DNA of 64,000 nt from Streptomyces sp. AV19. Its GTDB lineage: Bacteria > Actinomycetota > Actinomycetes > Streptomycetales > Streptomycetaceae. The translations under genes were made by a program, and so were the position numbers. Location of the stretch: assembly GCF_015999245.1 (NCBI RefSeq), contig NZ_JAEAMR010000016.1:1-64000 (forward strand), in the 5' to 3' direction. The notes under the pieces were generated by a model. That model saw only the letters and a list, made by a program, of their open reading frames with translations, made no database searches and had not been told where the DNA came from. Below, in pieces: positions 918 through 39,203 of this stretch. How positions within the stretch are numbered: position 1 is the first letter of the stretch; every line of letters begins with the position of its first letter.

Positions 918-947
918 CACAGCCTCTTCCGTCCCTGCTCTTCGTGC

Positions 948-1868
948 TCAGCCCGTGAACCGGGCCGCGTTCTCGCGCGTCACCAGCACCACCGGCACCT
1001 TCACCGTGCGCGGCAGCCGCTCACCGCCGGCCGCCCGGACCGCCCAGGCGACCGCCTGCCGGCCCAGCAGCGCCGGCTGCTGGGCCACCGTCGCCGTCAG
1101 CGCCCCCGCGCGCACCGCCGCGATCCCGTCGGGGGTCCCGTCGAAGGCGACGATCCTCACCTTCCGGCCCGCGTCCGCGCCCAGCGCCTTCGCCGCGCCG
1201 AGCGCCATCTCGTCGTTGGCGGCGAAGACCCCGGCCAGATCACCGTGCGCCTGCCGGAGGTTGGACATCACGTCCATGCCCTTGGTCCGGTCGAAGTCGG
1301 CGGGCTGGCGGGCCACCACCTCGATCCCGGGGTACGCCCCGATGCCCTCGTCGAAGCCCTTGCCGCGCTCGCGGGCGGCGGAGGTACCCGGCTGTCCCTC
1401 CAGGACGGCCACCTTCCCCCGGCCGCCCATCGACTCGGCCAGCGCCCGGGCCGCGATCCGCCCGCCCTCGACGTTGTCGGAGGCGATGGTCGTGCCCACC
1501 GTCCCGCCGTTGACCCCGCGGTCGATGGAAATCACCGGCACCTTCGCCCGGTTGGCCACCCCGACGGCGGGCACCGCCGCGTCCGAGTCCACCGGGTTGA
1601 TCACCGCGGCCCTGACATCCTGGCTGGTGAAGGTCTCCATCTGATTGACCTGCTGCATCGGGTCGTTCTGCGCGTCCGTGATGTTGATCTTCAGGCCGCG
1701 GGCCTTCGCCTCGGCCTGCGCGCCCTTCTTGATGCCCACGAAGAACGGGTTGTTGAGGGTGGACAGCGCCAGCCCCAGATCGGTGTTCCCGCCCCGGTCG
1801 CAGCCGGCCACGGCCGGCACCGCCAGCGCGCACGCCATGAACAGCCCCACGGCCCGCACCCGCCTCAT
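948..1868 (-). CDS. rbsB: Sugar ABC transporter substrate-binding lipoprotein (ribose type)
   Basis: Extracellular receptor that captures a pentose, probably ribose, and delivers it to the permease. The 306-residue product has a lipoprotein signal peptide ending in the lipobox VAGC (Cys about 24), then a periplasmic-binding-protein type 1 fold: LALSTLNNPFFVGIKKGAQAEA, INPVDSDAAVPAVGVA, VPVISIDRGVNGG and VFAANDEMALGAAKAL, all usual for RbsB. Its ATG overlaps the permease stop (ATGA), so the two are translationally coupled. Ribose rather than another sugar is inferred from the neighbouring ribokinase; ligand specificity cannot be read with certainty. Confidence 0.9.
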   Translation of the reverse strand: MRRVRAVGLFMACALAVPAVAGCDRGGNTDLGLALSTLNNPFFVGIKKGAQAEAKARGLKINITDAQNDPMQQVNQMETFTSQDVRAAVINPVDSDAAVPAVGVANRAKVPVISIDRGVNGGTVGTTIASDNVEGGRIAARALAESMGGRGKVAVLEGQPGTSAARERGKGFDEGIGAYPGIEVVARQPADFDRTKGMDVMSNLRQAHGDLAGVFAANDEMALGAAKALGADAGRKVRIVAFDGTPDGIAAVRAGALTATVAQQPALLGRQAVAWAVRAAGGERLPRTVKVPVVLVTRENAARFTG

Positions 1869-2842
1869 CGCGCGCTCCGCCGGCGCAGCGTGTCCAGCAG
1901 CACCGCCACCGCGATGACCAGACCCGTGGCCACCTGCTGCCAGAACGCCGAAACGCTCAGCAGATTGAGGCCGTTGCGCAGCACCGCCAGGATCAGCGCG
2001 CCGATCAGCGTCCCCGACGCCTTGCCCGAGCCGCCCGACAGACTCGCCCCGCCGATGACGACCGCGGCGATCGCGTCCAGCTCGTACCCGACCGCGGCCT
2101 GCGGCTGCGCGGAGGTCAGCCGGGAGGCCAGCACGATGCCGGCGACGGCCGCGAACAGCCCCGACAGCGCGTACACCACCAGCTTGCGCCGCCGGACGTC
2201 GATGCCCGACAGCCGGGCCGCCTCCTCGTTGCCGCCGATCGCGAACATCGCCCGGCCCGTGTACGTACGGGCCAGCACCAGCGCCGCCAGCAGCCCCATC
2301 GCGGCCATCACCAGCACCGGCACCGGAAGCCAGCCGCCGAGCGTGTCCCCGAGCCGGCTCACCGACGACGGGAACGCGATCGGCGAACCGCCCGAGACCA
2401 CCAGGGCCAGACCCCGGCCCACCGAGAGCACCGCCAGCGTGGCGATGAACGCCGGCAGCCGCCCGTAGGCCACCAACGCCCCCGAGACCAGCCCCGCCAC
2501 GACACCCACCGCCAGACCCAGCAGCACCGCCACCCACACCGGCAGCCCCTGCGAGGTGGCCGCCCAGGCGACGACCGTCGCCGACAGCGCGGCCACCGAC
2601 CCCACCGACAGGTCGATGCCCGCCGACACGATCACGAACGTCACACCGAAGGCCAGGATCGCCGTCACCGACGCCTGGACCCCCACGTTCAGCAGGTTCT
2701 GCCCGCCCAGGAAATCCTTCGACAACACGGCCATCACCACGACCAGCGCGGCCAGACCGCCCAGCGGGCCGTTGCGCAGCACCGCCCTCGTGAACCACTG
2801 CCCGGGAGTGCCCCCCGGCGCCCTCAGCACCTCAGCCGACAT
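1865..2842 (-). CDS. rbsC: Sugar ABC transporter permease (ribose type)
   Basis: Membrane channel of the importer. The 325-residue protein has 8-10 hydrophobic helices and the BPD_transp_2 signatures of RbsC: FGVTFVIVSAGIDLSVGSV near residue 80, the EEAARLSGIDVRRRKLVVYALSGLFAAVAGIV coupling region around residue 205, and AVVIGGASLSGGSGKASGTLIGA near 260. Its start overlaps the end of the ATPase gene by 11 bp and its end overlaps the binding-protein start by 4 bp. Like many actinomycete members it is a homodimer-type permease with no second permease gene in the operon. Confidence 0.92.
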   Translation of the reverse strand: MSAEVLRAPGGTPGQWFTRAVLRNGPLGGLAALVVVMAVLSKDFLGGQNLLNVGVQASVTAILAFGVTFVIVSAGIDLSVGSVAALSATVVAWAATSQGLPVWVAVLLGLAVGVVAGLVSGALVAYGRLPAFIATLAVLSVGRGLALVVSGGSPIAFPSSVSRLGDTLGGWLPVPVLVMAAMGLLAALVLARTYTGRAMFAIGGNEEAARLSGIDVRRRKLVVYALSGLFAAVAGIVLASRLTSAQPQAAVGYELDAIAAVVIGGASLSGGSGKASGTLIGALILAVLRNGLNLLSVSAFWQQVATGLVIAVAVLLDTLRRRSAR

Positions 2843-4439
2843 CGGAGCCCTCCATCGCGCTCTCGTTCCCTCGTTCCACCGCGCCGGGCGCGCGGACGGC
2901 CAGCTCCATCACCGCGTCCTGGGTGACCGTCCCGTCCGCCGCCGACAACTCCCCGGCGATCCGGCCCTGCGCCATCACCAGCACCCGGTCGCTCATGCCG
3001 AGCACCTCCGGCAGGTCACTGGAGATCATCAGCACCCCGCAGCCCGCCGCCGTCAGCTCGTTGACGAGCCGGTAGATCTCCACCCTCGCGCCCACGTCCA
3101 CACCGCGCGTCGGCTCGTCGAGGATCAGCAGCCGCACACCGGCCAGCAGCCACTTCCCGATGACCACCTTCTGCTGATTGCCGCCCGACAACGTCCGCGC
3201 CGACTGCTCCAGCCCGCTCATCCGCACCTTCAGCCGCCCCGCCATCGCGGCCGCCTCCCGGCGCTGCGCCCGCCGGTCCACGAAGCCGCCGCGGGTGTCG
3301 CGGTCCAGCCGGGCCAGCGTCAGGTTCTCGTCCAACGGCGCGTCCAGCAGCAGCCCCTGGGCCTTGCGGTCCTCGGGCACCAGCCCCAGCCCGGCCCGCA
3401 TCGCGGCCCGCACGTCGCCCCGGGCCAGCGCCCGGCCGTCCACCTCGACCGACCCGGACGCGTACCGGTCCACCCCGAAGACGGCCCGCGCCACCTCCGT
3501 GCGGCCCGCCCCCACCAGCCCGGCCAGCCCCACGACCTCCCCGGCGCGCACTTCGAAGCCGACGTCCGCGAAACCGGGCGCGCCGTCCGCACCCCGCCGG
3601 GTCAGCCCCCGCACCCGCAGCAGCGGAGCGCCCAACTCCGGGCGGCGGCGCGGGTACTGCTCGGTGATCTCCCGGCCCACCATCAGCCGGATCAGCTCGT
3701 CCTCGGGCACCGACGCGGGAACCTCGGCCACCGACCGGCCGTCGCGCAGCACCGTCACCCGGTCCCCGAGCTCGGCTATCTCCTCCAGATGGTGGGTGAT
3801 GAAGACGACCGCCACCCCGCCGGCGCGCAGCTCGCGCACGATCCCGAACAGCGTCGCCACCTCCGAGGAGGTGAGCACCGCCGTCGGCTCGTCCATGACC
3901 AGCACCCGGGCGTCCACCCCCAGCGCCTTGGCGATCTCCACCATCTGCAGCTGCGCGATCCCCAGCCCCGCGACCGGGGCCGCGGGGGAGACGTCCAGAC
4001 GCACCCGCTCCAGCAGCCGCGCGGCCCGCTCGCGCATCGCCCGCCGGTCCACCAGCCCGAACCTCGTCCGCGGCTGCCGCCCCAGGAAGAGGTTCTCGGC
4101 CACCGACAGCCCCGGCACCAGGTTGAACTCCTGGTGGATCGTGGCGATCCCCAGCCGCTCCGCGTCCTGCGCGGACCGGATGGCCACCTCCTCGCCGTCC
4201 ACCACGATCCGCCCCTCGTCGGGACGGTGCACCCCCGCGAGCATCTTGATCAGCGTGCTCTTGCCCGCCCCGTTCTCGCCGAGCAGCACGTGCACCTCGC
4301 CCGCACGCAGCGTCAGATCCACCCCGTCCAGGGCCCGCACCCCGGGGAACGACTTGGCCACCCCCTCGACGCGCAGCAACTCCCGGCCCGGGGGCGGGTC
4401 TTCACGGCTGTCCCGCACGTCGCCGTTGACGCCGGTCAT
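2832..4439 (-). CDS. rbsA: Sugar ABC transporter ATPase with two nucleotide-binding domains
   Basis: Energises the ribose-type importer. The 535-residue protein carries two NBDs. The first (about 20-250) has Walker A GENGAGKST, the signature region GIAQLQMVEIAKAL and Walker B VLVMDEPTAVL. The second (about 275-510) has a degenerate P-loop LVGAGRTE, a full LSGGNQQKV signature and LILDEPTRGVD. A degenerate second P-loop is normal for RbsA/MglA proteins. ATG at 4437-4439 was chosen because it precedes the family's usual N-terminus (LLRVEGVAKSFPGVRALDGV) and sits 11 bp after the regulator stop; the longer upstream open frame is antisense noise over the regulator gene. Confidence 0.93.
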   Translation of the reverse strand: MTGVNGDVRDSREDPPPGRELLRVEGVAKSFPGVRALDGVDLTLRAGEVHVLLGENGAGKSTLIKMLAGVHRPDEGRIVVDGEEVAIRSAQDAERLGIATIHQEFNLVPGLSVAENLFLGRQPRTRFGLVDRRAMRERAARLLERVRLDVSPAAPVAGLGIAQLQMVEIAKALGVDARVLVMDEPTAVLTSSEVATLFGIVRELRAGGVAVVFITHHLEEIAELGDRVTVLRDGRSVAEVPASVPEDELIRLMVGREITEQYPRRRPELGAPLLRVRGLTRRGADGAPGFADVGFEVRAGEVVGLAGLVGAGRTEVARAVFGVDRYASGSVEVDGRALARGDVRAAMRAGLGLVPEDRKAQGLLLDAPLDENLTLARLDRDTRGGFVDRRAQRREAAAMAGRLKVRMSGLEQSARTLSGGNQQKVVIGKWLLAGVRLLILDEPTRGVDVGARVEIYRLVNELTAAGCGVLMISSDLPEVLGMSDRVLVMAQGRIAGELSAADGTVTQDAVMELAVRAPGAVERGNESAMEGSDVG

Positions 4440-9285: not shown

Positions 9286-9997
9286 CCACCGCCGGGGTCC
9301 GGGCGGGCGCGGGGGCCGGCTGCCGCCGCAGGATGACGGCGAGGGCGGCGACGCCCAGCGCCACGGCCCCCAGCGCCCCGCCGAGGCCCAGGTGGGTCAG
9401 CGCCATGGCTCCGGCCGCGGCGCCCGCCCCGGTGGCGCCGATGATGCCCAGCCGGCGGACCATCTGGACGGGGGACCCGGATCCGGCGCAGAGGTCGTGG
9501 AGGAGGGCGATCAGGGCACCGGTGAGGGCGAAGGTCGCCTGGAGCTCCGGGACGGCCAGGCTGCGCAGGGCGGCGCACCGCATGCCCATGGTCACCGCCA
9601 GCACGGTGATCACGGCGTTGCGGCCGGCCGCGGCCTGCGGGAGCGTGCCGATCACGGCGGCGGTCAGCAACAGCATGGTCTCCAGCGACAGCACCGCGGT
9701 GAACCACCGTCCATGGCCCATCACACGTCGTCTGCGCACCACCCGTGCCGTCGACGCCACCCCGGCCGCGAATCCGAGCAGGGCCAGCAGCGGGCCCGCT
9801 TCCGTGAAGTGCGGCGCGCCGCCGAGGGCAAAGCCGAAGGTGATGACATTGCCGGTCATCATGCCGACGAAAACCTGCCCGAGTCCCAGGAAACTGATGG
9901 CGTCCAGCATTCCTCCGGTGACGGTGAGAAGCACGATCACCGTGGGCAGGGGGTCACCGTGTCGTCGGGTACGGAAAAGGAGCTTGGGGTGCTGCAC
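9278..9997 (-). CDS. DUF1275 (YoaK-like) membrane protein
   Basis: Integral membrane protein of unknown function, 239 residues, with about six hydrophobic helices. The N-terminal LTVTGGMLDAISFLGLGQVFVGMMTGNVITFG is the DUF1275 signature, with the conserved D, G and TGN residues, and MRCAALRSLAVPELQATFALTGAL in the middle also fits. Start is GTG at 9995-9997 with GGAG 8 nt upstream. The family often appears as a single gene in soil actinomycetes; I see no pathway link here. Convergent with and slightly overlapping the beta-lactamase gene. Confidence 0.85.
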   Translation of the reverse strand: MQHPKLLFRTRRHGDPLPTVIVLLTVTGGMLDAISFLGLGQVFVGMMTGNVITFGFALGGAPHFTEAGPLLALLGFAAGVASTARVVRRRRVMGHGRWFTAVLSLETMLLLTAAVIGTLPQAAAGRNAVITVLAVTMGMRCAALRSLAVPELQATFALTGALIALLHDLCAGSGSPVQMVRRLGIIGATGAGAAAGAMALTHLGLGGALGAVALGVAALAVILRRQPAPAPARTPAVVR

Positions 9998-10060
9998 GAA
10001 ATCACTCCAGCAGGCAAACGGCGGGTATTGAGGAAGTCGTCGGCGGGAAAAGCGCCAAGG

Positions 10061-10078
10061 GGCCCGGAAATCCGGGCC
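10061..10078. promoter_or_regulatory. 8-bp perfect inverted repeat, possible operator or hairpin
   Basis: GGCCCGGA and TCCGGGCC flank a 2-nt AA spacer, in the gap between the divergent DUF1275 and Nudix genes. It is followed closely by no T-run, so it is more likely a protein-binding site or attenuator than a terminator. The remaining part of the 9998-10241 gap shows nothing else I can support. Confidence 0.4.
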
Positions 10079-10241
10079 GTTGCCGAAGGATCTTCCTGAG
10101 GAGCCCGATCACCCGCAACCCCGCCCGGCGTTATCCCGCCACGGCGCTCGCCGGCAATCCCCTGTCGGCGCCGTCACCCGCTCCGGTACGTCGTCGCCGA
10201 ACCGCACCCCCCGCACGGCGGCTGCAACTACCGTGCGGGCA

Positions 10242-10745
10242 ATGACGAATCAGCAGCCGCTCGCCGGCCCGCGCATCCGCAACTCCGCCGTAGCCCTCGT
10301 CGTCCGGGACGGTCACGTCCTCCTCGGGCACGGCGACTGGCCCCGCCCCGACACCTGGTGGCTGCCCGGCGGCGGCCAGTGGCCCGGCGAGACCCTGACC
10401 GCATGTGTCGTGCGCGAGGTCCTGGAGGAGACCGGCGTCCGTGTCGTGGCGGGCCCGATGCTGTGGGTGCGCGAGTACGTCCCGGCGAACCACCCCGGCG
10501 AGCCGGTCACGGACGCGGACGGCCACCGGGTCGAGGTGCTGTTCGCCTGCACCGTCGTGGACGAGCCGGAGACGCTGGGCGGCATCGTGCCCGACGAGTA
10601 CCAGAGCGACATCACCTGGGTGCCCGTCGACAAGGTGGCCGGCCTGCGGATGATCCCCGCCCACCTGCAGGACCGCCTCCCGGACCTCATCGCGCAGGCG
10701 ACGGCGGGGCAGGCGCGGGCCCGTTACGAGGGGGACGTGGCGTGA
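10242..10745 (+). CDS. Nudix hydrolase
   Basis: Hydrolyses a nucleoside diphosphate linked to another moiety; the substrate cannot be read from sequence. The 167-residue protein has the complete Nudix box (G-x5-E-x7-REVLEETGV, at about residues 45-68: GGGQWPGETLTACVVREVLEETGV). The preceding DTWWLPGG and IRNSAVALVVRDGHVLLGHGD strands are typical. ATG at 10242 is the first Met just before the fold; the longer frame upstream is not supported. The product is a short, single-domain protein, likely cytoplasmic housecleaning or signalling. Confidence 0.88.
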   Translation: MTNQQPLAGPRIRNSAVALVVRDGHVLLGHGDWPRPDTWWLPGGGQWPGETLTACVVREVLEETGVRVVAGPMLWVREYVPANHPGEPVTDADGHRVEVLFACTVVDEPETLGGIVPDEYQSDITWVPVDKVAGLRMIPAHLQDRLPDLIAQATAGQARARYEGDVA

Positions 10746-10817
10746 CGTCCCGAGGAGCGGCCGTGCGTGGCGGCGGCATCCGGTGCGCCGGCGGAATCCC
10801 CTTGGCCTGAACGGCCG

Positions 10818-11378
10818 TCACGGCGCGATGGACTTGAGCCATTGCCCGACCGTGACGACGTCCGCCTGCCTCGGGAACACCTTCTCGGTGAGGACCCGGT
10901 GCACCTCGGGGTCGGTGTCGAGGCAGGCGTCCGCCAGGACGGTGAGACCGAGGTCCAGGTCGGCGGCCTGGCACAGGGTGGACAGCACGACACTGCCCGT
11001 GGCGATGCCGGCGAGGACGAGGCTGTCGATGCCGCCCGCCCTCAGGACCAGGTCGAGGTCGCTGCCGGAGAACGCGCTCGCCCGCCTCTTGGTGACCACG
11101 ACGTCGCCCTGCCGGGGCGGGACGTCCGGGTGGATGCGGGTCCCCGGGTCGTCCTCCGCGAAGAGTCCCGCCCGGATGACGGCGTCCATCGCCCTGTTGC
11201 GGGAGACTGCGTCCGGCCGCACCGGGCGCAGCCCCATGACCACGTAGATCACCGGGATGCCGGCGGCCCGGGCGCCGTCGGTCGCCCGGCGCAGGCGGGT
11301 CAGGTATCCGGATCCGTCGTCGGCGATGTCGACGACGGCCTGTTGGACGTCCATCACCAGGAGGGCGGTTCCTGCCAT
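10818..11378 (-). CDS. Isochorismatase-like hydrolase lacking the catalytic cysteine
   Basis: The 186-residue protein has the cysteine-hydrolase fold of isochorismatase/nicotinamidase relatives: catalytic-type Asp in LLVMDVQQAVVD (residue 10), Lys in VVTKRRASAFSGSDLD (about 98), and the cis-peptide loop LAGIATGSVVLSTL (about 121-134). In active amidohydrolases of this fold the residue after the loop is the nucleophilic Cys; here I see G-S-V-V with no Cys. True isochorismatases also lack that Cys, so it may act by that non-cysteine mechanism or be inactive. ATG is preceded by a strong GGAGG site. No siderophore or chorismate genes are adjacent. Confidence 0.8.
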   Translation of the reverse strand: MAGTALLVMDVQQAVVDIADDGSGYLTRLRRATDGARAAGIPVIYVVMGLRPVRPDAVSRNRAMDAVIRAGLFAEDDPGTRIHPDVPPRQGDVVVTKRRASAFSGSDLDLVLRAGGIDSLVLAGIATGSVVLSTLCQAADLDLGLTVLADACLDTDPEVHRVLTEKVFPRQADVVTVGQWLKSIAP

Positions 11379-11783
11379 GTTTCCTCCGTCGCTTCGCCGA
11401 GCGGCCGTTGCTCACCGCCGTTCCGCGGCGGCGGCCCGGGTCAGCGTAACGGCCTGCCGGGCCGGCGAGGGAGCGAACCGGCGTGCTCCCGCGACACTTT
11501 CCGTCGGCCCGACGGTATCGGCCGAGGCGCCCTGACCGCCGAACGGTCCGGTTTCCGGGGGCCGTCGCACCTGCCGGAATCCCCCGGACCAAGTCGCCTC
11601 GCAGCACCCGGGCTTGCCTGCTGTACGCGGCGAAGCAGGCGGCGGCCCCGTGCCTGACGACGGCCGGGGACGGGACGGTGGAGGCGCCCGCGGAACCACG
11701 GTGAGGTGACGATCCGTCCCCCGGTTTCCGCCCGCCCCCACCGGCGCAGTATCGAGAAGGGTGGCGCGACGGAGGGGGAGAGC
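11379..11783. other. 405-bp gap with no supported gene
   Basis: This gap separates the divergent isochorismatase-like and proteasome-like genes, so it must hold two promoters. Short open frames on both strands here are low-complexity Arg/Pro-rich translations without ribosome sites or recognisable motifs. I see no repeat, RNA gene or clear hexamer pair. Confidence 0.5.
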
Positions 11784-12332
11784 ATGACCGTGATCGTCGG
11801 GCTCGTTCACGACGGGCGGGTGCACCTGGGCGGGGACTCGGCGGGGGTCGGCGGATACAGACTCACCGTCCGCCAGGATCCGAAGGTCTTCCGCAACGGC
11901 CCCTACGCCATGGGCTTCACGACGAGCTTCCGCATGGGCCAGTTGCTGCACCACGCGTTCAAGGCGCCCAAGCCCAAGGGCGACCTGGACCGGTTCATGA
12001 CCACCGTCTTCGTCGACAAGCTGCGCACGTGCCTCAAGGACGGCGGCTGGGCGCGCAAGGACTCCGAGCAGGAGGAGGGCGGGACGTTCCTCGTCGGTGT
12101 GTACGGCCGTCTGTTCGCCGTCTACGGCGACTACCAGATAGCCGAACCCGCCGACGGATACGCGGCGGTGGGGTGCGGGGACGAGTTCGCGCTCGGCGCC
12201 CTGCACGCCACCGCGGGCATGGGCCTCGAACCGCGCAAGCGGCTGACCCTGGCCCTGGCGGCCGCCGGCTACCACAGCGCCGGGGTCTCCGCCCCGTTCA
12301 CCTACGTCACCGCGCGAAAGCCGCCGTCCTGA
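11784..12332 (+). CDS. Proteasome-like Ntn-hydrolase family protein
   Basis: A 182-residue protein beginning MTVIVGLVHDGRVHLGGDSAGVGG, which matches the N-terminal strands of proteasome beta/HslV-type Ntn hydrolases: Thr2 would become the nucleophile after Met removal, and GGDSA sits where the conserved Asp of the fold occurs. GTFLVGVYGRLFAVYGDYQI and AVGCGDEFALGALHA fit the later core strands. It is not the core 20S proteasome, which lies with prcA/prcB and pup elsewhere in actinomycetes. ATG follows a GGAGGGGGAG site. Substrate and activity unknown; the nucleophile assignment is inference. Confidence 0.7.
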   Translation: MTVIVGLVHDGRVHLGGDSAGVGGYRLTVRQDPKVFRNGPYAMGFTTSFRMGQLLHHAFKAPKPKGDLDRFMTTVFVDKLRTCLKDGGWARKDSEQEEGGTFLVGVYGRLFAVYGDYQIAEPADGYAAVGCGDEFALGALHATAGMGLEPRKRLTLALAAAGYHSAGVSAPFTYVTARKPPS

Positions 12333-12337
12333 TCGGG

Positions 12338-12979
12338 TCAGCGACAGTGCAGGACGGCGAACGGCCCCTGGGCCCGGGTCCCGTCCGGCTGCCGCCACCA
12401 GCCCGTGACCTGGCCGGTCGCCCCCTGCGGGAGGGTGCCGGGGCGCAGGACGCGGTTCAGGCGCAGGGTGACGTCCTGCGAGGTCCCGGTGAGGGTGGTC
12501 GACTCGCGGTCGTCGGTGACGGTGGAGAGGTCCGCCGGGACCGGGCCGTTCCCGGTGAACGAGCGTGTGATCCCGGGGTCGGGGGCATCGCTGGTGTTCT
12601 GGTCCTGTGCCTGGGCGCGGCCCTCGATCAGGGCGAGGAGCCCGTCGACGAGCACCGGGTCGTGGCAGCCGTCGTAGGCCCAGCGCGTGCCCAGCACGCC
12701 GTGCTCCATCGTGCCGACGAGCGCGTCCTCGGCGCCCTTGAGCGGGGCGCCGCGGTAGGTGACCGGCACCAGGTAGGTGACCGGCCCGGCGCCCGCCGTG
12801 TCGGTCACCGCCATGAACTCGATCCCGACCTCGCCCGCCGGGTCGTCCAGCCGGAAGCCGCCCGCCCTCTCCAGCTTCGGGGCGCCGACGGCGGGGCGGT
12901 ACCAGGGGCGGGTGGGCAGCCAGGCGGTGAGCAGTTCGTCCTTGGACGGGACGACGGTGGTGTGGTGGATGACGGCCAT
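12338..12979 (-). CDS. Maltokinase N-terminal cap-like domain protein
   Basis: A soluble protein of 213 residues. MAVIHHTTVVPSKDELLTAWLPTRPWY and GFRLDDPAGEVGIEFMAV resemble the N-terminal cap of actinobacterial maltokinase (Mak), but there is no kinase domain after it: the remainder is a predicted beta-rich segment (TRSFTGNGPVPADLSTV, LRPGTLPQGATGQVTGWW). Free-standing cap-like proteins are common in streptomycetes and their role is unknown. I chose ATG at 12979; an ATG nine codons upstream at 13006 is possible. Its stop is 5 bp from the convergent Ntn-hydrolase stop. Two other glucan genes lie much further along (19535-24589). Confidence 0.65.
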   Translation of the reverse strand: MAVIHHTTVVPSKDELLTAWLPTRPWYRPAVGAPKLERAGGFRLDDPAGEVGIEFMAVTDTAGAGPVTYLVPVTYRGAPLKGAEDALVGTMEHGVLGTRWAYDGCHDPVLVDGLLALIEGRAQAQDQNTSDAPDPGITRSFTGNGPVPADLSTVTDDRESTTLTGTSQDVTLRLNRVLRPGTLPQGATGQVTGWWRQPDGTRAQGPFAVLHCR

Positions 12980-33090: not shown

Positions 33091-33909
33091 TCAGCCCGGC
33101 CGTGCGAAGCGGCGCGCGGCCACCGCGAGCGCCGCCACGGCGATCGCGGCGGTGATGCCGAGCTCCGCCGCGACGGGCGGCTGCCAGCCGGGGGACGGGA
33201 ACGCGGCCCCGGGCGCGTGCGCGGCCACCGCCCGGCGCAGCGGATCGACCGCGTACGTCAGCGGGTTGGCCAGGCAGAGCACCGTGAGCCAGCGCGGCAG
33301 GCCGGAGAGCGGGAACATCGCCCCGGAGAGGAACAGCATCGGCATCATGGCGAAGCCCAGCACCGCCTGGAAGGTCTGCATGCGGGTGATGCAGACGGCG
33401 GCGACGGCTCCGAGGGCGGTCAGGGCCAGGGCGGCCAGGGCGAGTTCGCCGGTCAGCGTGGCGAACAGGGCAGGGTCGTAGGGGACGTGCGCGGTCCCTG
33501 CCAGGGCGAGGACGAGCACGCCCTGACAGGTCGCCACGGTCGCGCCTCCCGCGCACTTGCCCAGCAGCAGGGCGTCGCGCCGGACGGGGGCGACGAGCAT
33601 CTCGCGCAGGAAGCCGGCCTCGCGGTCCCACACGATGGACGCGCCCGCGCCGATCGCGGGCATCTGCACGGTCATGACGAGGACGCCCGGGAAGAGGTAC
33701 GTGCGGTAGTCGCCGGCGCCCGCGGAGGCGGGGACGAGGGCCGACAGGCCCGTGCCGAGGACGAGCAGCAGGAGGACGGGCTGCGCCAGCGTGATGGCCA
33801 GCCGGCCGCGGTTGCGCAGGAAGTGCATCATCTCCCGCTGCCAGACCACCCGGACGGCGCGCATCTCGTGCCGTACGCCCCCGGGGACCGCCCGCACGGC
33901 GGTCGTCAT
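33091..33909 (-). CDS. ABC-2 type exporter permease of the lasso cluster
   Basis: A 272-residue membrane protein with about six helices: LAQPVLLLLVLGTGLSAL, YLFPGVLVMTVQMPAIGAGASIVWDREAGFLREMLVAP (the ABC-2 signature) and VLGFAMMPMLFLSGAMFPLSGLPRWL. It is the membrane half of a DrrAB-type exporter; its start overlaps the ATPase stop (ATGA). Last gene of the minus-strand lasso operon, so it probably pumps out one or both mature lasso peptides and gives self-protection. Many lasso clusters instead have a single fused ABC protein. Confidence 0.88.
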   Translation of the reverse strand: MTTAVRAVPGGVRHEMRAVRVVWQREMMHFLRNRGRLAITLAQPVLLLLVLGTGLSALVPASAGAGDYRTYLFPGVLVMTVQMPAIGAGASIVWDREAGFLREMLVAPVRRDALLLGKCAGGATVATCQGVLVLALAGTAHVPYDPALFATLTGELALAALALTALGAVAAVCITRMQTFQAVLGFAMMPMLFLSGAMFPLSGLPRWLTVLCLANPLTYAVDPLRRAVAAHAPGAAFPSPGWQPPVAAELGITAAIAVAALAVAARRFARPG

Positions 33910-34949
33910 CGCGTGTCCTCCGCACTGTGGAGGGTGCGGCCGGTGCAGCGGAGGAACACGTCGTCCAGGCTGGGCCGGGTGACGGCCACCGACAGCACCG
34001 GCACCCCGAGCCCCTCGCACAGGCGGGGCACGAACGACGCCCCGTCCGGGACGTGGACCAGCAGCCCTTCGCGGTCCGCGTGCACCCGCAGGCCGAAGCG
34101 TTCGCGCAGGGCGCGCAGCGCGGCGGTGTCGTCGGCGGTGCGGACGGCGACGCGGTCGGCGCCGACGACGGCCTTGAGGGCGGCGGGAGTTCCCTCGGCG
34201 ACGATGCGGCCCCCGTCGATGACGGCGATGCGGTCGCAGTGTTCGGCCTCCTCCAGGTAGTGGGTGGTCAGGAAGAGGGTCACCGACTGCCGGGTGCGGA
34301 CGCGGTGGAGGTGTTCCCACACCTGGGCGCGGCTGTGCGGGTCGAGGCCGAGGGTGGGCTCGTCCAGGAAGAGCACCTGCGGCGCGTGCAGCAGTCCGCG
34401 CGCGATCTCCAGCCGGCGTTTCATGCCGCCGGAGAAGGTCCGGACGGCACTGTCGCGGCGGTCGTGGAGGCCGACGAGGGCGAGCATCTCGGTGACGCGG
34501 CGGCGCGCGGCGCGGCGGGGCAGGCCGTAGAGGTCGGCGTGGAAGCGGAGGTTCTCGGCGGCGGTCAGGTCGCCGTCGACGGTGAGGTCCTGGAAGACCA
34601 GCCCGATGCGGCGGCGTACGGCGGCGGGGTCGGTGGTCACGTCGGCGCCGGCGACGCTCGCCCGGCCCGCGGTGGGCCGGGCGAGCGTGCAGAGCATCGC
34701 GATCGTGGTGGACTTGCCGGCGCCGTTGGGCCCGAGGAACCCGAAGGTCTCCCCGGCACGCACGGTCAGGTCCACGCCGCGGACGGCTTCGACGCCGGGG
34801 TAGGTCTTGCGCAGGTCCCGGGCGAGGATGGTGGCGGCCGCGACTGCCGGATCGTCCTGCGCGGCACATGGGGCGGTGAGGCCGGCAGCGGTGGTCCGCC
34901 CGACAGGAAGACCGGCCGCGTTCGCCGAGTACCGGGCCTCACCGCTCAT
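33906..34949 (-). CDS. ABC exporter ATPase of the lasso cluster
   Basis: A 347-residue DrrA-type ATPase. Walker A GPNGAGKST, Q-loop LVFQDLTVDGDLTAAENL, signature TFSGGMKRRLEIARGLLHAP and Walker B VLFLDEPTLGLDPHSR are intact, and the C-terminal domain (VAVRTADDTAALRALRERFG, SLDDVFLRCTGR) is typical of drug-exporter ATPases. It starts 3 bp after the second precursor stop and overlaps the permease start, so it is firmly part of the operon. About 35 extra N-terminal residues before ILARDLRKTYPGVEAV suggest a downstream start is possible. Confidence 0.9.
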   Translation of the reverse strand: MSGEARYSANAAGLPVGRTTAAGLTAPCAAQDDPAVAAATILARDLRKTYPGVEAVRGVDLTVRAGETFGFLGPNGAGKSTTIAMLCTLARPTAGRASVAGADVTTDPAAVRRRIGLVFQDLTVDGDLTAAENLRFHADLYGLPRRAARRRVTEMLALVGLHDRRDSAVRTFSGGMKRRLEIARGLLHAPQVLFLDEPTLGLDPHSRAQVWEHLHRVRTRQSVTLFLTTHYLEEAEHCDRIAVIDGGRIVAEGTPAALKAVVGADRVAVRTADDTAALRALRERFGLRVHADREGLLVHVPDGASFVPRLCEGLGVPVLSVAVTRPSLDDVFLRCTGRTLHSAEDTR

Positions 34950-34952
34950 AGG

Positions 34953-35090
34953 TCAGCCACCTACCGCCAGGTAATAGGGGTAGGCGCCCATGTAGTCGAA
35001 GTAACTGCCGGGACTCATGCCGCAGGTCAGTACGGTGAATTCACCGACCTCGGCGATCGCGGGCGGCTCATACGTCTCGTGCTGTTCCAT
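34953..35090 (-). CDS. Lasso peptide precursor, second copy (core with D9)
   Basis: A 45-residue precursor. The leader MEQHETYEPPAIAEVGEFTV (then LTC) contains the RRE-recognised YxxPx(L/I)xxxGxFxxxT motif: Y7, P10, I12, G16, F18 and T22, with Thr at the second-last leader position as in other lasso precursors. Cleavage after C23 gives a 22-residue core starting G1-M-S-P-G-S-Y-F-D9 and continuing YMGAYPYYLAVGG. The only acidic core residue is D9, so a Gly1-Asp9 9-residue macrolactam is predicted, with a Tyr-rich tail and no cysteine in the core. It sits between the B2 protease and the exporter, 13 bp after B2, with its own AAGGAG site. Confidence 0.88.
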   Translation of the reverse strand: MEQHETYEPPAIAEVGEFTVLTCGMSPGSYFDYMGAYPYYLAVGG

Positions 35091-35103
35091 GGTTTTACTC
35101 TCC

Positions 35104-35535
35104 TTACCTCCGCCCCACGCCCCGTGACGCGGGGACACTCATCAACAGCCGGTAGTAGCCGTCCGAATGCGGCTCGCCGACCGGGCGGCCCTCGGCCTGC
35201 ACCCAGGCGTGGGCGCGGAAGGGTTCGGTGCGGACGCCGGTGCACCACTCCGGCCAGACCCCGCGCACGCGGCACAACAGGGCGGTGGCGATGGACCGTT
35301 GCAGGCAGCCCTCCCCCGCGCACCGGGCGCTCACGGAGACCACCGCGCGGCGGGCGGCCAGGGCCTGCTCCGCCGTGGCGGGCCGGGCCCCGTGCCGGAC
35401 GGCCGACAGCACCCGGCGGATGCGGCGCGGCGCGAGTCCGGCCAGCGGGCGCGCGGCGGCGACCGCGAGCAGGGCCGGCAGCCGGTCGCGCGGCCGGAGG
35501 GCGTCCCGGGCGGCGGGGACCATCGGTGTGCTCAT
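35104..35535 (-). CDS. Lasso leader peptidase (B2, transglutaminase-like)
   Basis: Cysteine protease that removes the lasso leader. The 143-residue protein has catalytic Cys77 in GEGCLQRSIATALL and His109 in FRAHAWVQAEG, the conserved lasso B2 motifs; the acidic third member is presumably in the EG...EP stretch that follows. The N-terminal helical part (RLPALLAVAAARPLAGLAPRRIRRVL) is also normal for B2. Start overlaps the B1 stop (ATGA). It has no fused RRE, in keeping with the separate B1 gene. Confidence 0.92.
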   Translation of the reverse strand: MSTPMVPAARDALRPRDRLPALLAVAAARPLAGLAPRRIRRVLSAVRHGARPATAEQALAARRAVVSVSARCAGEGCLQRSIATALLCRVRGVWPEWCTGVRTEPFRAHAWVQAEGRPVGEPHSDGYYRLLMSVPASRGVGRR

Positions 35536-35795
35536 GCGGTCACCACCAGGCGGGCCTCGGTCAGTGAGCGGATGAAGAACGCCACGTCGGCGGCGGTGCG
35601 TTCGGCGGTGAGGGAGGGGTAGTGCTCCCCCAGCCGCCGGGCCGTCTGCTGGGGCGTGGCGCCGTCCAGCAGGGCGTGGAGGATGAGGGCGCCGGAGCTG
35701 TTCAGCTGCCAGTAGCGGCCGGTGGACTCGTCGAGCAGCACCATGCCGTGGTCGGTGTCGGTCACCGAGACGTCGGGGCGCAGGGCGAAGGTCAT
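35532..35795 (-). CDS. Lasso RRE protein (B1, PqqD-like)
   Basis: An 87-residue RiPP recognition element that binds the leader and presents it to B2. MTFALRPDVSVTDTDHGMVLLDESTGRYWQLNSSGALIL is the PqqD-like wing (strands plus WQLN-ALILHALLDG helix) and the C-terminal half is three helices. It recognises the shared YxxPxLxxxGxF leader motif, so a single B1 can serve both precursors. Overlaps C and B2 by 4 bp each, indicating translational coupling. Confidence 0.92.
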   Translation of the reverse strand: MTFALRPDVSVTDTDHGMVLLDESTGRYWQLNSSGALILHALLDGATPQQTARRLGEHYPSLTAERTAADVAFFIRSLTEARLVVTA

Positions 35796-37633
35796 GACGG
35801 GCCTCCGGTGGTGACGGCCGTGCGTCCGGGGCGCGAGCGGAGCCAGACCTCGCAGCCGACGGTGGCGTCCAGGTCGCGCAGCGCGTTGGGGTCGGGATGC
35901 ACGCCGAGCAGCCGGGCCCGGAGGACATCGGTGTCGATCAGTCCGGCGCGGGCGAGCAGCGAGTCGTCGAACAGTTCCAGCAGGGCGGCGCGGTTGCGGC
36001 GCAGGCCGGTGTGGAATTCGGCGCTGTACTCGCCTTTGGTGGAGCGCGCCAGCACGGCCTCGGGCACGATGCCGCGCATCGCGCCGGCCAGGACGGGCTT
36101 GTAGCGGTCGGGGGCGAGGCGTTCGGCGACGCGGACGGCGAGGGCCGCCTCGACGACGCCGTCGTCGAGGAAGGGGGCGGCGTACTCCAGCCCGTGGCGG
36201 GACATGACGTGGCCGAGCTGGCGGACGCCGTACCCGCCGGCCAGGACGGAGAGGACGGCCGCGTGCTGGCCGCGCTGCCGGGCCAGCGGCGGGGTGCCGG
36301 CGGAGGCGGCCCTGCACAGGCGGTGGCGTACGGCGTGCACCGCGTCCGGCGTCGCCCAGGACGGCATGTCCTGCCGCGTGCCCCAGTCCACGGAGAATTC
36401 GGCGAGTTGCTGCCGGGAGGGGGGCGGGGCACCGGTGAGGCCGTCGGCCCAGGCGGTCAGCCACTGGTCGTAGGTGCTGCGGTCGGCGAGGCCGCGGACG
36501 ACCGGCCACAGCCGGGTGCGCTGGAAGGCGCACTGCCTGCGGAGGCGGCCGACGGCGGCGAGCGGGTCACTGCGGATGTAGTCGTGCAGGTGGGAGGGGA
36601 AGGCGGTGAACAGTTCGTCCCCGCCGACGCCCATCATGTGCAGCCGGGAGCCGCGCCCGGTCATCGACCGGGCCAGGGTCGCGAGGCGTACGGCGTCGCG
36701 GACCCAGGGGCCGGGTTCCTCGGTGGGGACGATCGCGTCGGTGATGCCGCTGTACCAGGACGGCGCGTCGGCGTTGCCGACGACGACGTGTTCGGCGGCG
36801 GGCAGCCGGGAGGCCGCGCGGCCGGCCCAGGCGGGGTCGTCGTTGTCCGGGTCCCGGCTCGCCCAGCGGAACGTGACCAGGCGCGCCGGTTCGCGGGCGG
36901 CGAGGAAGCACAGGCTGGTGGAGTCCAGGCCGCCGGAGAGGTCGGAGCTGATCGTTCCGCCGTCGGAGGTGCAGGAGCGGACCGCGGCCTCCAGCGCCCG
37001 CCGCACGGCGTGCGCCCCCTCGGCGGCCGGCACGACCGGCTCGGGAGCCCGCCACCACTGCTGCGCGCGGGCCCGTCCGTCGGCCTCGATCAGCAGGCAG
37101 TCGTGGGACCGGAGCGCATGGACGCCCTGCCACACGCACGTACGGTCCAGCGGGTGGAGCGGCGGCGAGGACAGCAGGTGCACCGCCAACTGCCGTTCGT
37201 CGACGTCGGCTTCGGTGAGCCGCGCGAGTACGGCGGACCGGTCGGCCGCGAGCGTGGCGCCGCCCACGCGGGTGTGGAAGACGCGGCGCGTCCCCGAGGC
37301 GCTGCCCCGGACGCGGACCCGCCGGCCGACGGACGCGACCACGTGGAAGCTGCCGGCCAGGCCCCGTACGGCGTACTCGGCGTCCTCGGCCTTCCGGACC
37401 CGTCTCAGGCCCACCGCCAGGGCACCGGCGGTGACCGGGCAGCGCCCGATCACCGCCAGCCGCGCCGCCCCGGCCCGGGAGGTCTTCACCCATCCGTCCG
37501 GCCAGCTGCCCAGCAGCCACGGCCGGCCGGAGTCGTGGTCGACCACCCGGGTGGCGAGAGGACGCAGGGCCCGCGCCGCGGCGAGACCGGCATCGCCGTC
37601 AGGGAGGACGGTGAACCATGCCTCGCCGGACAC
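35792..37633 (-). CDS. Lasso macrolactam synthetase (C, asparagine synthetase-like)
   Basis: ATP-dependent enzyme that activates the core Asp9 side chain as an adenylate and closes the ring with Gly1. The 613-residue protein has a glutaminase-like N-terminal domain without the Cys2 nucleophile (it begins MSGEAW) and a synthetase domain with the PPi loop SGGLDS at residues 233-238, VTFRWASRDPDNDDPAWAGR, and GVGGDELFTAFPSHLHDYI. KGEYSAEFHTGLRRNR near the C-terminus is typical of lasso C proteins. GTG start, 6 bp after the first precursor stop. Neighbours B1 and B2 exclude ordinary asparagine synthesis. Confidence 0.93.
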   Translation of the reverse strand: MSGEAWFTVLPDGDAGLAAARALRPLATRVVDHDSGRPWLLGSWPDGWVKTSRAGAARLAVIGRCPVTAGALAVGLRRVRKAEDAEYAVRGLAGSFHVVASVGRRVRVRGSASGTRRVFHTRVGGATLAADRSAVLARLTEADVDERQLAVHLLSSPPLHPLDRTCVWQGVHALRSHDCLLIEADGRARAQQWWRAPEPVVPAAEGAHAVRRALEAAVRSCTSDGGTISSDLSGGLDSTSLCFLAAREPARLVTFRWASRDPDNDDPAWAGRAASRLPAAEHVVVGNADAPSWYSGITDAIVPTEEPGPWVRDAVRLATLARSMTGRGSRLHMMGVGGDELFTAFPSHLHDYIRSDPLAAVGRLRRQCAFQRTRLWPVVRGLADRSTYDQWLTAWADGLTGAPPPSRQQLAEFSVDWGTRQDMPSWATPDAVHAVRHRLCRAASAGTPPLARQRGQHAAVLSVLAGGYGVRQLGHVMSRHGLEYAAPFLDDGVVEAALAVRVAERLAPDRYKPVLAGAMRGIVPEAVLARSTKGEYSAEFHTGLRRNRAALLELFDDSLLARAGLIDTDVLRARLLGVHPDPNALRDLDATVGCEVWLRSRPGRTAVTTGGPS

Positions 37634-37639
37634 GGGGTG

Positions 37640-37771
37640 TCAGCCCTGGGTGCCGAAGTAGTAGTAGCCCATCGAGTCGAACAGCTGCCCGTTGATGAAG
37701 CCTCGGGTCAGCTCGGTGAAGTCACCGATCTCGGCGAGGGCGGGCGGCTCGTAGATGTCCTGTCGTTCCAT
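37640..37771 (-). CDS. Lasso peptide precursor, first copy (core with D9)
   Basis: A 43-residue precursor at the head of the operon. The leader (MERQDIYEPPALAEIGDFTE, then LTR) has the same YxxPxLxxxGxFxxxT motif (Y7, P10, L12, G16, F18, T22). Cleavage after R23 leaves a 20-residue core starting G1-F-I-N-G-Q-L-F-D9 and continuing SMGYYYFGTQG. D9 is the only acid, giving a Gly1-Asp9 ring; the tail carries three consecutive Tyr plus Phe as likely steric plugs. It shares G5, F8, D9, M11 and G12 with the second precursor. ATG at 37771 is preceded by AAAGAGG; the longer upstream frame contains the palindrome and is not real. Confidence 0.9.
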   Translation of the reverse strand: MERQDIYEPPALAEIGDFTELTRGFINGQLFDSMGYYYFGTQG

Positions 37772-37872: not shown

Positions 37873-37894
37873 TTTCCACTCCCAGGGGTGGAAA
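37873..37894. promoter_or_regulatory. Near-perfect palindrome upstream of lasso operon
   Basis: Arms TTTCCACTCC and GGGGTGGAAA flank a CA centre, giving ten paired positions with one mismatch (T opposite G). It lies about 100 bp upstream of the first precursor and 54 bp beyond the end of the preceding same-strand gene. It could be the terminator of that gene, but with no T-run and a 2-nt centre it looks more like a dimeric-regulator site controlling the lasso operon. Confidence 0.55.
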
Positions 37895-37948: not shown

Positions 37949-38518
37949 TCACGGCCCGATTTCCAGCTGCGTGGAGCCGGTGACTCCGCGCAGGCCGGAG
38001 CCGAGGCAGTCCGTGGGCAGCTGGCCGGACAGCGCGGGCGTGGTCCGCTGCGCGGTCAGCCCCGCGCCGCGCCCCGCGACGACCCGGCCGGTCACCCTGG
38101 TCACGAGGACTCCGGCGACGCGGAGAGTCGCCCCCTCGCCGTAGACGATCACTGATCGGGTCCCGTCGGCGTACCGCACGATCTCCGTGGGACGGGAGGT
38201 GGGTTGGGCGAGGCAGGAGGCCGTCGGGGCGACCCCGTCCAGGGAGGCGTGGGCCGGTACGGTCCGGCCGGGTGCGACGGTGCAGGAGTACGTGGCGTCG
38301 ACGTGGACACGCGTCCTGCGGGGCACGAGGGTCAGCGGCGGCTCGTGCGTGCCGTGGCTGGTGCCCGTGCACACGACACCACTTCTGCTCGCACCCCCGT
38401 CCGCCTCACCGGCCGGAGCCCATGCCGACGAAGAGCCCGCCAACACCAGGGAACTCAATGCCACCGCCGCTCTGCGTCCACCGAACACGCGCCCTCCAAG
38501 GCACTCCTGATCCACCAT
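37949..38518 (-). CDS. Hypothetical secreted protein
   Basis: A 189-residue protein with a signal peptide (RRAAVALSSLVLAGSSSAWA, cleaved near residue 33), so extracellular. The mature part is beta-rich with about four cysteines (VVCTGTSHGT, ATYSCTVAPG, TASCLAQPTS, LPTDCLGSG), likely two disulfides. RYADGTRSVIVYGEGATLRVAGVLVTRVTGRV has no family I know. Start uncertain: ATG 38518 or GTG 38488, the latter with GGAGGG just upstream. It precedes the lasso operon on the same strand, but I see no functional link. Confidence 0.65.
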   Translation of the reverse strand: MVDQECLGGRVFGGRRAAVALSSLVLAGSSSAWAPAGEADGGASRSGVVCTGTSHGTHEPPLTLVPRRTRVHVDATYSCTVAPGRTVPAHASLDGVAPTASCLAQPTSRPTEIVRYADGTRSVIVYGEGATLRVAGVLVTRVTGRVVAGRGAGLTAQRTTPALSGQLPTDCLGSGLRGVTGSTQLEIGP

Positions 38519-38687
38519 CGGCCCTGCCCTACCCGCGGCCGTTCCCCGTCAGCCCGGCTCGCGTCAGTGCACCCGCGGCGCACGCCCCGCCCCGTGCGCG
38601 GATCCCGCACCGCGCGCACCACGCGAGCCCCTTGGGGACCGGCGCACCGGGTAGGGACCAACACCTGTACAGAGAAAGGGCATTTCG

Positions 38688-39203
38688 ATGAACGGAATCG
38701 TTGCCAAGCAGCTGGTCTTCGCCGTGCTCGACACGGACGGGGACGGCGTCATCTCCAGGCACGACTACTTCACGCGGATCGACCGGCTGGCCGTCGCGAC
38801 GCGACGCGGCGAGGAGGATCCCATGGTCGTCCGCGCACGCGCGGCCGGTGAACGGGCGTGGGCGGTGATGGACGCGGACGGTGACGGCCGGATGACGGAG
38901 GACGAGTACCTGGCGTGGGTCGGCGTCGAGGCGTTCGACACCATCTGCTCGCCCGCGCTCGGCGCGCTGTTCGACCTCGCCGACACCGACGGGGACGGCA
39001 CCGTGGACCGCTCCGAATTCGTCGTACTGCGCACGGCGTTGGGCAATCCGGCCGGCAACGCCGAGGCGGCCTTCGACGCGCTCGACACCGACGGGGACGG
39101 GCGCGTCGGCCGCCACGACTACCTGATGTCGATCCGCACGCACATCGCGGGGGAACACTCGCCCGCCGGCGCGGTTCTGTACGCCACCGCCACGGCCGCC
39201 TGA
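38688..39203 (+). CDS. EF-hand calcium-binding protein (four loops)
   Basis: A cytoplasmic 171-residue calmodulin-like protein. Four canonical EF loops are visible: DTDGDGVISRHD (about 16-27), DADGDGRMTEDE (about 62-73), DTDGDGTVDRSE (about 101-112) and DTDGDGRVGRHD (about 135-146). Loops 1 and 4 end in Asp rather than the usual Glu at position 12. Loop spacing matches the Streptomyces CabB/calerythrin-type sarcoplasmic Ca-binding group. ATG at 38688 follows AGAAAGGG. No obvious client gene is adjacent. Confidence 0.92.
   Translation: MNGIVAKQLVFAVLDTDGDGVISRHDYFTRIDRLAVATRRGEEDPMVVRARAAGERAWAVMDADGDGRMTEDEYLAWVGVEAFDTICSPALGALFDLADTDGDGTVDRSEFVVLRTALGNPAGNAEAAFDALDTDGDGRVGRHDYLMSIRTHIAGEHSPAGAVLYATATAA

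What the first reader, a model, noticed from the sequence alone, without database searches (positions are those of the whole stretch)
33091..37771. Lasso peptide cluster with two precursors flanking one maturation set
Seen: two small minus-strand genes, each with the YxxPx(L/I)xxxGxFxxxT leader motif and a Gly-starting core, at both ends of a C-B1-B2 set, then an ABC exporter pair. Cores align at G1, G5, F8, D9, M11 and G12 but differ in the tail (GYYYFGTQG versus AYPYYLAVGG). Both should give Gly1-Asp9 rings. I do not recognise either core. Two precursors per enzyme set raises questions of enzyme tolerance, divergence and shared self-resistance, and the products look new.
Basis: partly seen in the sequence, partly recalled or inferred. 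Interest (0 to 1): 0.88.

Follow-up and report, generated by a model that had tools for sequence, protein, structure and literature searches.

The report
Two-precursor Streptomyces lasso peptide operon
This is a complete-looking gene set for making knotted antibiotic-like peptides (lasso peptides) that carries two different peptide genes for one set of enzymes; such sets are already known, but these two peptides look new and the way the peptide genes are placed is unusual.

Summary
One compact minus-strand operon reads A1-C-B1-B2-A2-D1-D2 (window 33091-37771). Both small genes have lasso leaders (NCBIfam lasso_leader_L3 above cut-off), and Asp9 is the only acid in either core, so if the core starts at Gly1 the ring must be Gly1-Asp9. 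The first 11 residues of each core are in no paper searched, and neither core closely resembles the 62 lasso peptides of one review table. Less common is the placement: ten of the 12 keep all precursors upstream of C; the nearest relative, S. mashuensis, has none upstream and three between B2 and D1; only the window has one on each side. An inverted repeat upstream of the operon recurs in 14 of 24 loci, also in S. mashuensis where the upstream precursor is missing. I read A1 as the ancestral-slot precursor and A2 as sharing a second slot with S. mashuensis. New member of a known kind; no product, synergy or self-resistance is shown.

The parts
37640..37771 (-). A1, lasso precursor, 43 aa; leader MERQDIYEPPALAEIGDFTELTR, core GFINGQLFDSMGYYYFGTQG (predicted Gly1-Asp9 ring, no Cys)
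   Evidence: NCBIfam lasso_leader_L3 35.3 bits, cut-off 19; genome-wide profile E 1.5e-18
35792..37633 (-). C, lasso macrolactam cyclase (asparagine-synthase family, GTG start, SGGLDST motif visible in the sequence)
   Evidence: Pfam Asn_synthase 150 bits; NCBIfam macrolact_Ik_Al 260.6 bits, below its cut-off of 300; 72% identity to S. mashuensis
35532..35795 (-). B1, PqqD-like leader-binding protein (RRE)
   Evidence: NCBIfam lasso_PqqD_Strm 100.2 bits, cut-off 70; PDB 6jx3 chain TfuB1 E 8.1e-17
35104..35535 (-). B2, transglutaminase-like leader peptidase
   Evidence: NCBIfam lasso_biosyn_B2 116.2 bits, cut-off 33; Pfam Transglut_core3
34953..35090 (-). A2, lasso precursor, 45 aa; leader MEQHETYEPPAIAEVGEFTVLTC, core GMSPGSYFDYMGAYPYYLAVGG (predicted Gly1-Asp9 ring, no Cys); 13 nt after B2 and 3 nt before D1
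   Evidence: NCBIfam lasso_leader_L3 21.3 bits, cut-off 19; genome-wide profile E 5.3e-19
33906..34949 (-). D1, ABC transporter ATPase of DrrA type
   Evidence: NCBIfam drrA 327.1 bits, cut-off 312.45; 77% to S. mashuensis D1
33091..33909 (-). D2, ABC-2 permease of DrrB type
   Evidence: NCBIfam drrB 177.5 bits, below its cut-off of 223.05; Pfam ABC2_membrane 107 bits, cut-off 26.9
37877..37890 (-). Inverted repeat CACCCCTGGGAGTG, 119 nt upstream of the A1 start codon; candidate operator found in related operons
   Evidence: 14 of 24 upstream regions (window and S. mashuensis included) carry it, 1.75% of mononucleotide-shuffled regions do; alignment. Not specific alone: one site in the window where 0.77 are expected, 10 sites in the genome against 7 for a control pattern

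Best explanation
A lasso peptide operon in a Streptomyces genome that matures two different class II (cysteine-free) lasso peptides with one enzyme set. B1 would bind the near-identical leaders of A1 and A2 (YEPPAxAExGxFTxLT), B2 would cut after the residue that follows the conserved leader Thr, C would join Gly1 to the side chain of Asp9, and D1/D2 would export the products. Gene content, leaders, single possible ring acid and compact operon are shown; binding, cutting, cyclisation, threading and export are inferred from the families. A1 sits in the slot used by nearly all single-precursor relatives (upstream of C). A2 sits in a second slot, between B2 and D1, that only S. mashuensis shares in the loci examined, so the window probably keeps a precursor in the ancestral slot and has an added one. 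Precursors turn over faster than the enzymes.
For: Family hits for all seven genes. Both leaders carry the columns invariant in 17 aligned precursors, A1 and A2 being two of the 17 (Y7, E8, P10, G16, F18, T22, G24); A2's unusual Cys before the core also occurs in two single-precursor Nonomuraea clusters (L066, L068). Genes are spaced from -4 to +13 nt. S. mashuensis has C at 72% and B1 83%, B2 75%, D1 77%, D2 77% identity, but three precursors between B2 and D1 and none upstream of C. Its upstream region still aligns with the window's and carries the inverted repeat 118 nt before C, against 119 nt before A1. A2's best core partner by raw score is S. mashuensis A3 (51), the gene in the same position. 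Of 53 paired loci with exactly one precursor hit, 52 have it upstream of C. The C tree groups window, S. mashuensis and L065 at 100/99.
Against: No expression or mass data. The pairing of A2 with S. mashuensis A3 is weak: by shuffle z-score A2 is marginally closer to S. mashuensis A1 (5.2 against 4.7), and DNA identity of the A2-A3 cores is only 54%, lower than A1-A2 at 69%, so A1 and A2 could instead be a local duplication. The tree does not resolve window plus S. mashuensis against L065 (62/21), and L065 lacks the rest of B1, B2 and what follows, so a single origin of the second slot is not shown. C and D2 fall below the NCBIfam cut-offs of their best models. No sigma-70-type promoter was found.
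Confidence: 0.85

Rival explanations
1. Only one precursor is productive; the other is a relic or a poor substrate (A2 with Cys at -1, or A1) kept by chance.
For: A2 scores lower on the leader model (21.3 against 35.3 bits). Precursor loss and cluster decay do happen: S. mashuensis lacks the upstream gene and L065 has a broken C and B1.
Against: Both genes are open, have a purine-rich stretch before the ATG (visible), carry the common leader columns, Gly1 and an acid at 9, and have high third-position GC (0.91 and 0.78). Cys at -1 occurs in single-precursor clusters.
Confidence: 0.2
2. The two products form a two-component (synergistic) pair, as in two-peptide lantibiotics such as roseocin.
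For: Two unlike cores in one operon with one exporter. Two-peptide lantibiotics with conserved leaders and different cores are established (start of the abstract of PMC10027976, listings).
Against: The nearest relative has three other precursors rather than a conserved pair, and 54 of 66 paired loci have a single precursor once the G063 artefact is counted as one; an obligate pair should be co-conserved.
Confidence: 0.1
3. Compatible with the operon reading but not with its history: A1 and A2 arose by a duplication within this cluster and owe nothing to the S. mashuensis precursors.
For: A1's best core partner of 17 is A2 (z 4.0); they share F8-D9-x-M11-G12 and 69% core DNA identity, the highest core pairing for either among the eight genes compared.
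Against: The B2-D1 slot is shared with S. mashuensis, whose last precursor has the HETYEPP leader start and the YPYY tail of A2.
Confidence: 0.35

Closest known systems
Lasso cluster of Streptomyces mashuensis JCM 4059 (L046)
   Same: Homologous C, B1, B2, D1, D2 in the same order (71-83%); precursor genes between B2 and D1; upstream inverted repeat. No study of it seen: none of the 15 rows listed (of 38 papers) held both the species name and 'lasso peptide'
   Different: Three precursors, all downstream of B2, none upstream of C; cores GLSSGNVMENGVFPYVWYILAAG, GCTYGYNLEDAGAGPWYCYAAG, GYPPGAWMDGSAPYPYYSPFAG
Caulosegnins I-III (Caulobacter segnis)
   Same: Three precursors with divergent cores processed by the same enzymes (PMC13352647 passage; core identities 32-37%)
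   Different: Caulobacter rather than Streptomyces; 8- and 9-residue rings; no core similarity seen
Felipeptins A1 and A2 (class IV lasso peptides)
   Same: Two different lasso peptides from one cluster (PMC9266682 passages, table of PMC12427821)
   Different: Two Cys joined in each core and Glu at position 8 (table; ring size is my inference); the window cores have no Cys. Their cluster has an oxidoreductase gene filE; none is among the seven operon genes here
TfuB1 (PDB 6jx3), of the fusilassin/fuscanodin system (system name recalled)
   Same: B1 of the window is a clear sequence relative (E 8.1e-17)
   Different: Single-precursor system as far as I recall (not checked here)

Membership tests
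Lasso peptide biosynthetic cluster | Precursor with Y/P leader motif and conserved penultimate leader Thr | tested here: met
   lasso_leader_L3 above cut-off for A1 and A2; Thr in 17 of 17 aligned precursors, these two included
Lasso peptide biosynthetic cluster | N-terminal Gly (or similar) and Asp/Glu at core position 7-9 | tested here: met
   Gly1 and Asp9 in both; Asp9 is the only acid in each core (sequence)
Lasso peptide biosynthetic cluster | B1 (RRE), B2 (transglutaminase-like peptidase) and C (Asn-synthase-like cyclase) | tested here: met
   B1 and B2 above NCBIfam cut-offs; C above the Pfam Asn_synthase cut-off but below the cut-off of its best NCBIfam model, 260.6 against 300
Lasso peptide biosynthetic cluster | Threaded lariat product | not testable with these tools
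   Needs mass spectrometry, carboxypeptidase assay or NMR
Class II lasso peptides (no disulfide) | No cysteine in the core | tested here: met
   Neither core contains Cys; the Cys of A2 is the last leader residue (sequence)
Multi-precursor lasso cluster | Two or more precursors served by one enzyme set | tested here: inconclusive
   Gene layout met: one C/B1/B2 set in the operon with two precursors. Two other, distant B2-like loci exist in the genome (40% and 33%), one with another type of leader, and no leader of this type was found at either. That the one set serves both is not shown
Two-component bacteriocin | Both peptides needed for full activity | not testable with these tools
   No activity data; the pair is not conserved in the nearest relative

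The most novel reading that the evidence does not exclude
In this small Streptomyces clade the precursors behave as exchangeable cassettes: one nearly constant enzyme-exporter set accepts strongly divergent Gly1...Asp/Glu9 cores, which are gained, lost and moved between an upstream slot and a B2-D1 slot, so that close relatives with 72-83% identical enzymes make entirely different sets of lasso peptides.
Probability: 0.35. Interest if true: 0.5.

Novelty: new member of a known kind. Interest (0 to 1): 0.3.

Why it matters
It predicts two new class II lasso peptides with exact masses, and together with S. mashuensis (three more) it offers a natural test set for how much core variation one lasso enzyme set accepts: five divergent cores that all keep Gly1, Gly5 and an acid at 9. 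It does not open a new kind of system.

Tried and rejected
Plasmid collection: no record covers 80% of the operon query; the best-ranked hit covers 31% of it, in the ABC part. Family and relatives genome draws with the C protein: two further matching genomes (G692, G602), none; one precursor was found in each of the two 4.8-kb loci. Window flanks against S. mashuensis: no match outside the operon's own genes and a paralogous ABC gene in its 18 kb, at E 1e-15 with ORFs of 90 aa or more. Promoter scan: no sigma-70-like site; one weak terminator-like site inside B1 that I do not credit. Inverted repeat as a genome-wide regulon mark: rejected as non-specific, 10 sites against 7 control sites. Comparison with 62 known cores: A2 against sphingonodin II reached z 4.8, but in 124 comparisons and with Asp8 in that peptide; A1's best was ulleungdin, z 2.1. 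G063's second precursor was dropped as an inverted copy at a contig end. PDB searches with C and B2 gave nothing.

Counting limits. The 67 C loci were picked by me from the list because their genome also had precursor hits; one of the 67 had no precursor nearby. One search's list is cut off and scored at most about 3 candidates a genome, and one search scored 18 first-look candidates a genome, so precursor and cluster counts are lower bounds and 12 of 66 is not a rate for all lasso clusters. G113 and G135 look like near copies. Core identities in 10 of the 11 other multi-precursor clusters (S. mashuensis included, G113 left out) run from 27% to 85%; the window's is 50%, so the window pair is not unusually divergent. 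Tree: one search included one row (L039) taken in a wrong frame by my mistake; one search replaces it. In one search, L055 and L065 carry one X at an internal stop (codons 472 and 426).

Full report
What is there. The interval 33091-37771 holds one compact minus-strand operon: A1 (37640-37771), C (35792-37633), B1 (35532-35795), B2 (35104-35535), A2 (34953-35090), D1 (33906-34949), D2 (33091-33909). Neighbouring genes overlap by 4 nt or are at most 13 nt apart. NCBIfam puts both small proteins above the cut-off of the lasso leader model, B1 and B2 above their lasso models, D1 above the DrrA model; C and D2 are above Pfam cut-offs (Asn_synthase, ABC2_membrane), but below the cut-offs of their best NCBIfam models. 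B1 is a clear relative of TfuB1, PDB 6jx3.

More than chance. A strict leader regex gives exactly these two hits in the window and none in 60 simulated windows. A profile of 17 precursors, these two included, finds these two in the 7.5-Mb genome and then nothing better than E 0.365.

Cores. A1 core: GFINGQLFDSMGYYYFGTQG. A2 core: GMSPGSYFDYMGAYPYYLAVGG. Asp9 is the only acid in each, so if either is a lasso starting at Gly1 its ring must be Gly1-Asp9. Neither has Cys, so both would be class II. Predicted lasso masses are 2245.978 and 2346.997. No paper in the library holds the first 11 residues of either core (main texts only), and no convincing match appears among 62 known lasso peptides of one review table. 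That is not a search of RODEO, BAGEL or antiSMASH data.

Relatives. A search of 392 genomes of the genus and a scan of genome contigs (which keeps its best 80 loci) gave a subfamily of about twenty Streptomyces clusters with C at 57-72% identity. Nearest is S. mashuensis JCM 4059 (L046): C 72%, B1 83%, B2 75%, D1 77%, D2 77%. It has no precursor upstream of C; three precursors lie between B2 and D1. Next is Streptomyces sp. UNOC14_S4 (L065; C 69%): one upstream precursor, but its C has a stop at codon 426 and its B1 match ends after 30 residues, so it looks decayed. In the DNA fetched, the other subfamily clusters have one precursor, upstream of C except in S. cinnamoneus, where the order is B1-B2-C-A; L049 has a partial inverted second copy at its contig end. 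The C tree joins window, S. mashuensis and L065 with support 100/99 but does not order them.

How common. In the genus sample I paired 67 C loci with leader-profile hits: 66 had a precursor within 5 kb and 13 had two or more, one of them (G063) a contig-end inverted copy, leaving 12 (lower bounds, see the counting limits). Of these 12, ten have all precursors upstream of C, S. mashuensis has all downstream, and the window alone has one on each side. Published multi-precursor clusters include xanthomonins, caulosegnins, caulonodins and astexins-2/-3 (passage of PMC7549694) and felipeptins A1/A2 (passages of PMC9266682; table of PMC12427821). So two precursors per set is a known kind; the split placement is the less common trait in this sample. 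The divergence of the two cores (50% identity) is not: 10 of the 11 other multi-precursor clusters run from 27% to 85%.

Slots and turnover. Upstream of A1 lies an inverted repeat, CACCCCTGGGAGTG on the coding strand, 119 nt before the start codon. The form CAYYC...GRRTG occurs 103-135 nt upstream in 14 of 24 related regions (window and S. mashuensis included) against 1.75% of shuffled ones; the 10 misses are L049, L052, L058, L060, L061, L064, L066, L067, L068 and L069. The rows are related, so these are not 14 independent cases. S. mashuensis keeps it 118 nt upstream of C although no precursor is there, which fits loss of an upstream precursor (inference). As a genome-wide mark the motif is not specific. 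A2 is closest by raw core score to S. mashuensis A3, which occupies the same position just before D1; both leaders hold HETYEPP and both tails hold YPYY. Against this, the shuffle z-score slightly prefers S. mashuensis A1, and A1-A2 core DNA identity (69%) exceeds A2-A3 (54%). I therefore hold the shared second slot as likely and the gene-by-gene orthology as open.

Mechanism. By the established roles of the families (general knowledge; the leader-binding and leader-Thr roles are also stated in a passage of PMC7549694): B1 binds the common leader, B2 cuts it off, C activates Asp9 and closes the ring on Gly1 around the tail, and the ABC pair exports. The aromatic tails (YYYF; Y-P-YY) could supply the steric plugs (inference). 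Nothing here shows that both precursors are matured, that the products act together, or that D1/D2 give self-resistance.

Verdict. A well-formed two-precursor lasso operon with two apparently new cores, of a known kind. Interest comes from the pairing with S. mashuensis: similar enzymes with different precursor sets.

Noticed in passing
L044 (own genome G000:C2) 9522-12632, minus strand: A second lasso-like locus: small ORF MSQQHTAAD...LTRGSDKDSTESKQDPYD (12486-12632), an Asn-synthase-like ORF, a B2-like ORF (one search hit) and a GNAT-like ORF downstream. Its resemblance to albusnodin clusters is my reading; no family search was run on it.
   Followed up: partly
L045 (own genome contig C41, 3492 bases) 256-3192: A third lasso-like fragment on a short contig: PqqD-like ORF, B2-like ORF (one search hit) and a 665-aa ABC transporter-like ORF (names are my reading); no precursor matched the leader regex.
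   Followed up: no
L046 8727-8861 and L048 5618-5746: S. mashuensis precursor 2 and the S. griseocarneus precursor have a Cys at core position 2 and one in the tail (GCTYGYNLEDAGAGPWYCYAAG; GCTVGSMIEMNPEFPWFCER): a possible single ring-tail disulfide, which would be the rare class III layout (core z 6.3).
   Followed up: no
L049, L050, L052, L055, L056, L058-L061: Nine Streptomyces loci carry an almost invariant core GEALGA[HFRY]YEGGFPPYEWYLGP[NS] with C at 57-62% identity to the window: a strongly conserved lasso peptide; starts of two of its variants were in no paper searched.
   Followed up: partly
L054 10871-12241 against window 37952-39182: In S. olivoreticuli homologues of the window's EF-hand gene (38688-39203) and of the neighbouring 189-aa gene lie about 2.6 kb beyond B2 of its lasso cluster (66% and 50% identity), suggesting the same neighbourhood with a rearrangement.
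   Followed up: no
L057 and L063 (S. sp. CB02923, S. monomycini): A precursor and C are present but no B1 or B2 match was found by tblastn with the window proteins within the fetched 13.8 kb.
   Followed up: no
L138, L139, L140: Clusters with two or three precursors spaced 0.4-2.2 kb apart whose cores end in CVDW...AW[VIF]C, another multi-precursor lasso group.
   Followed up: no
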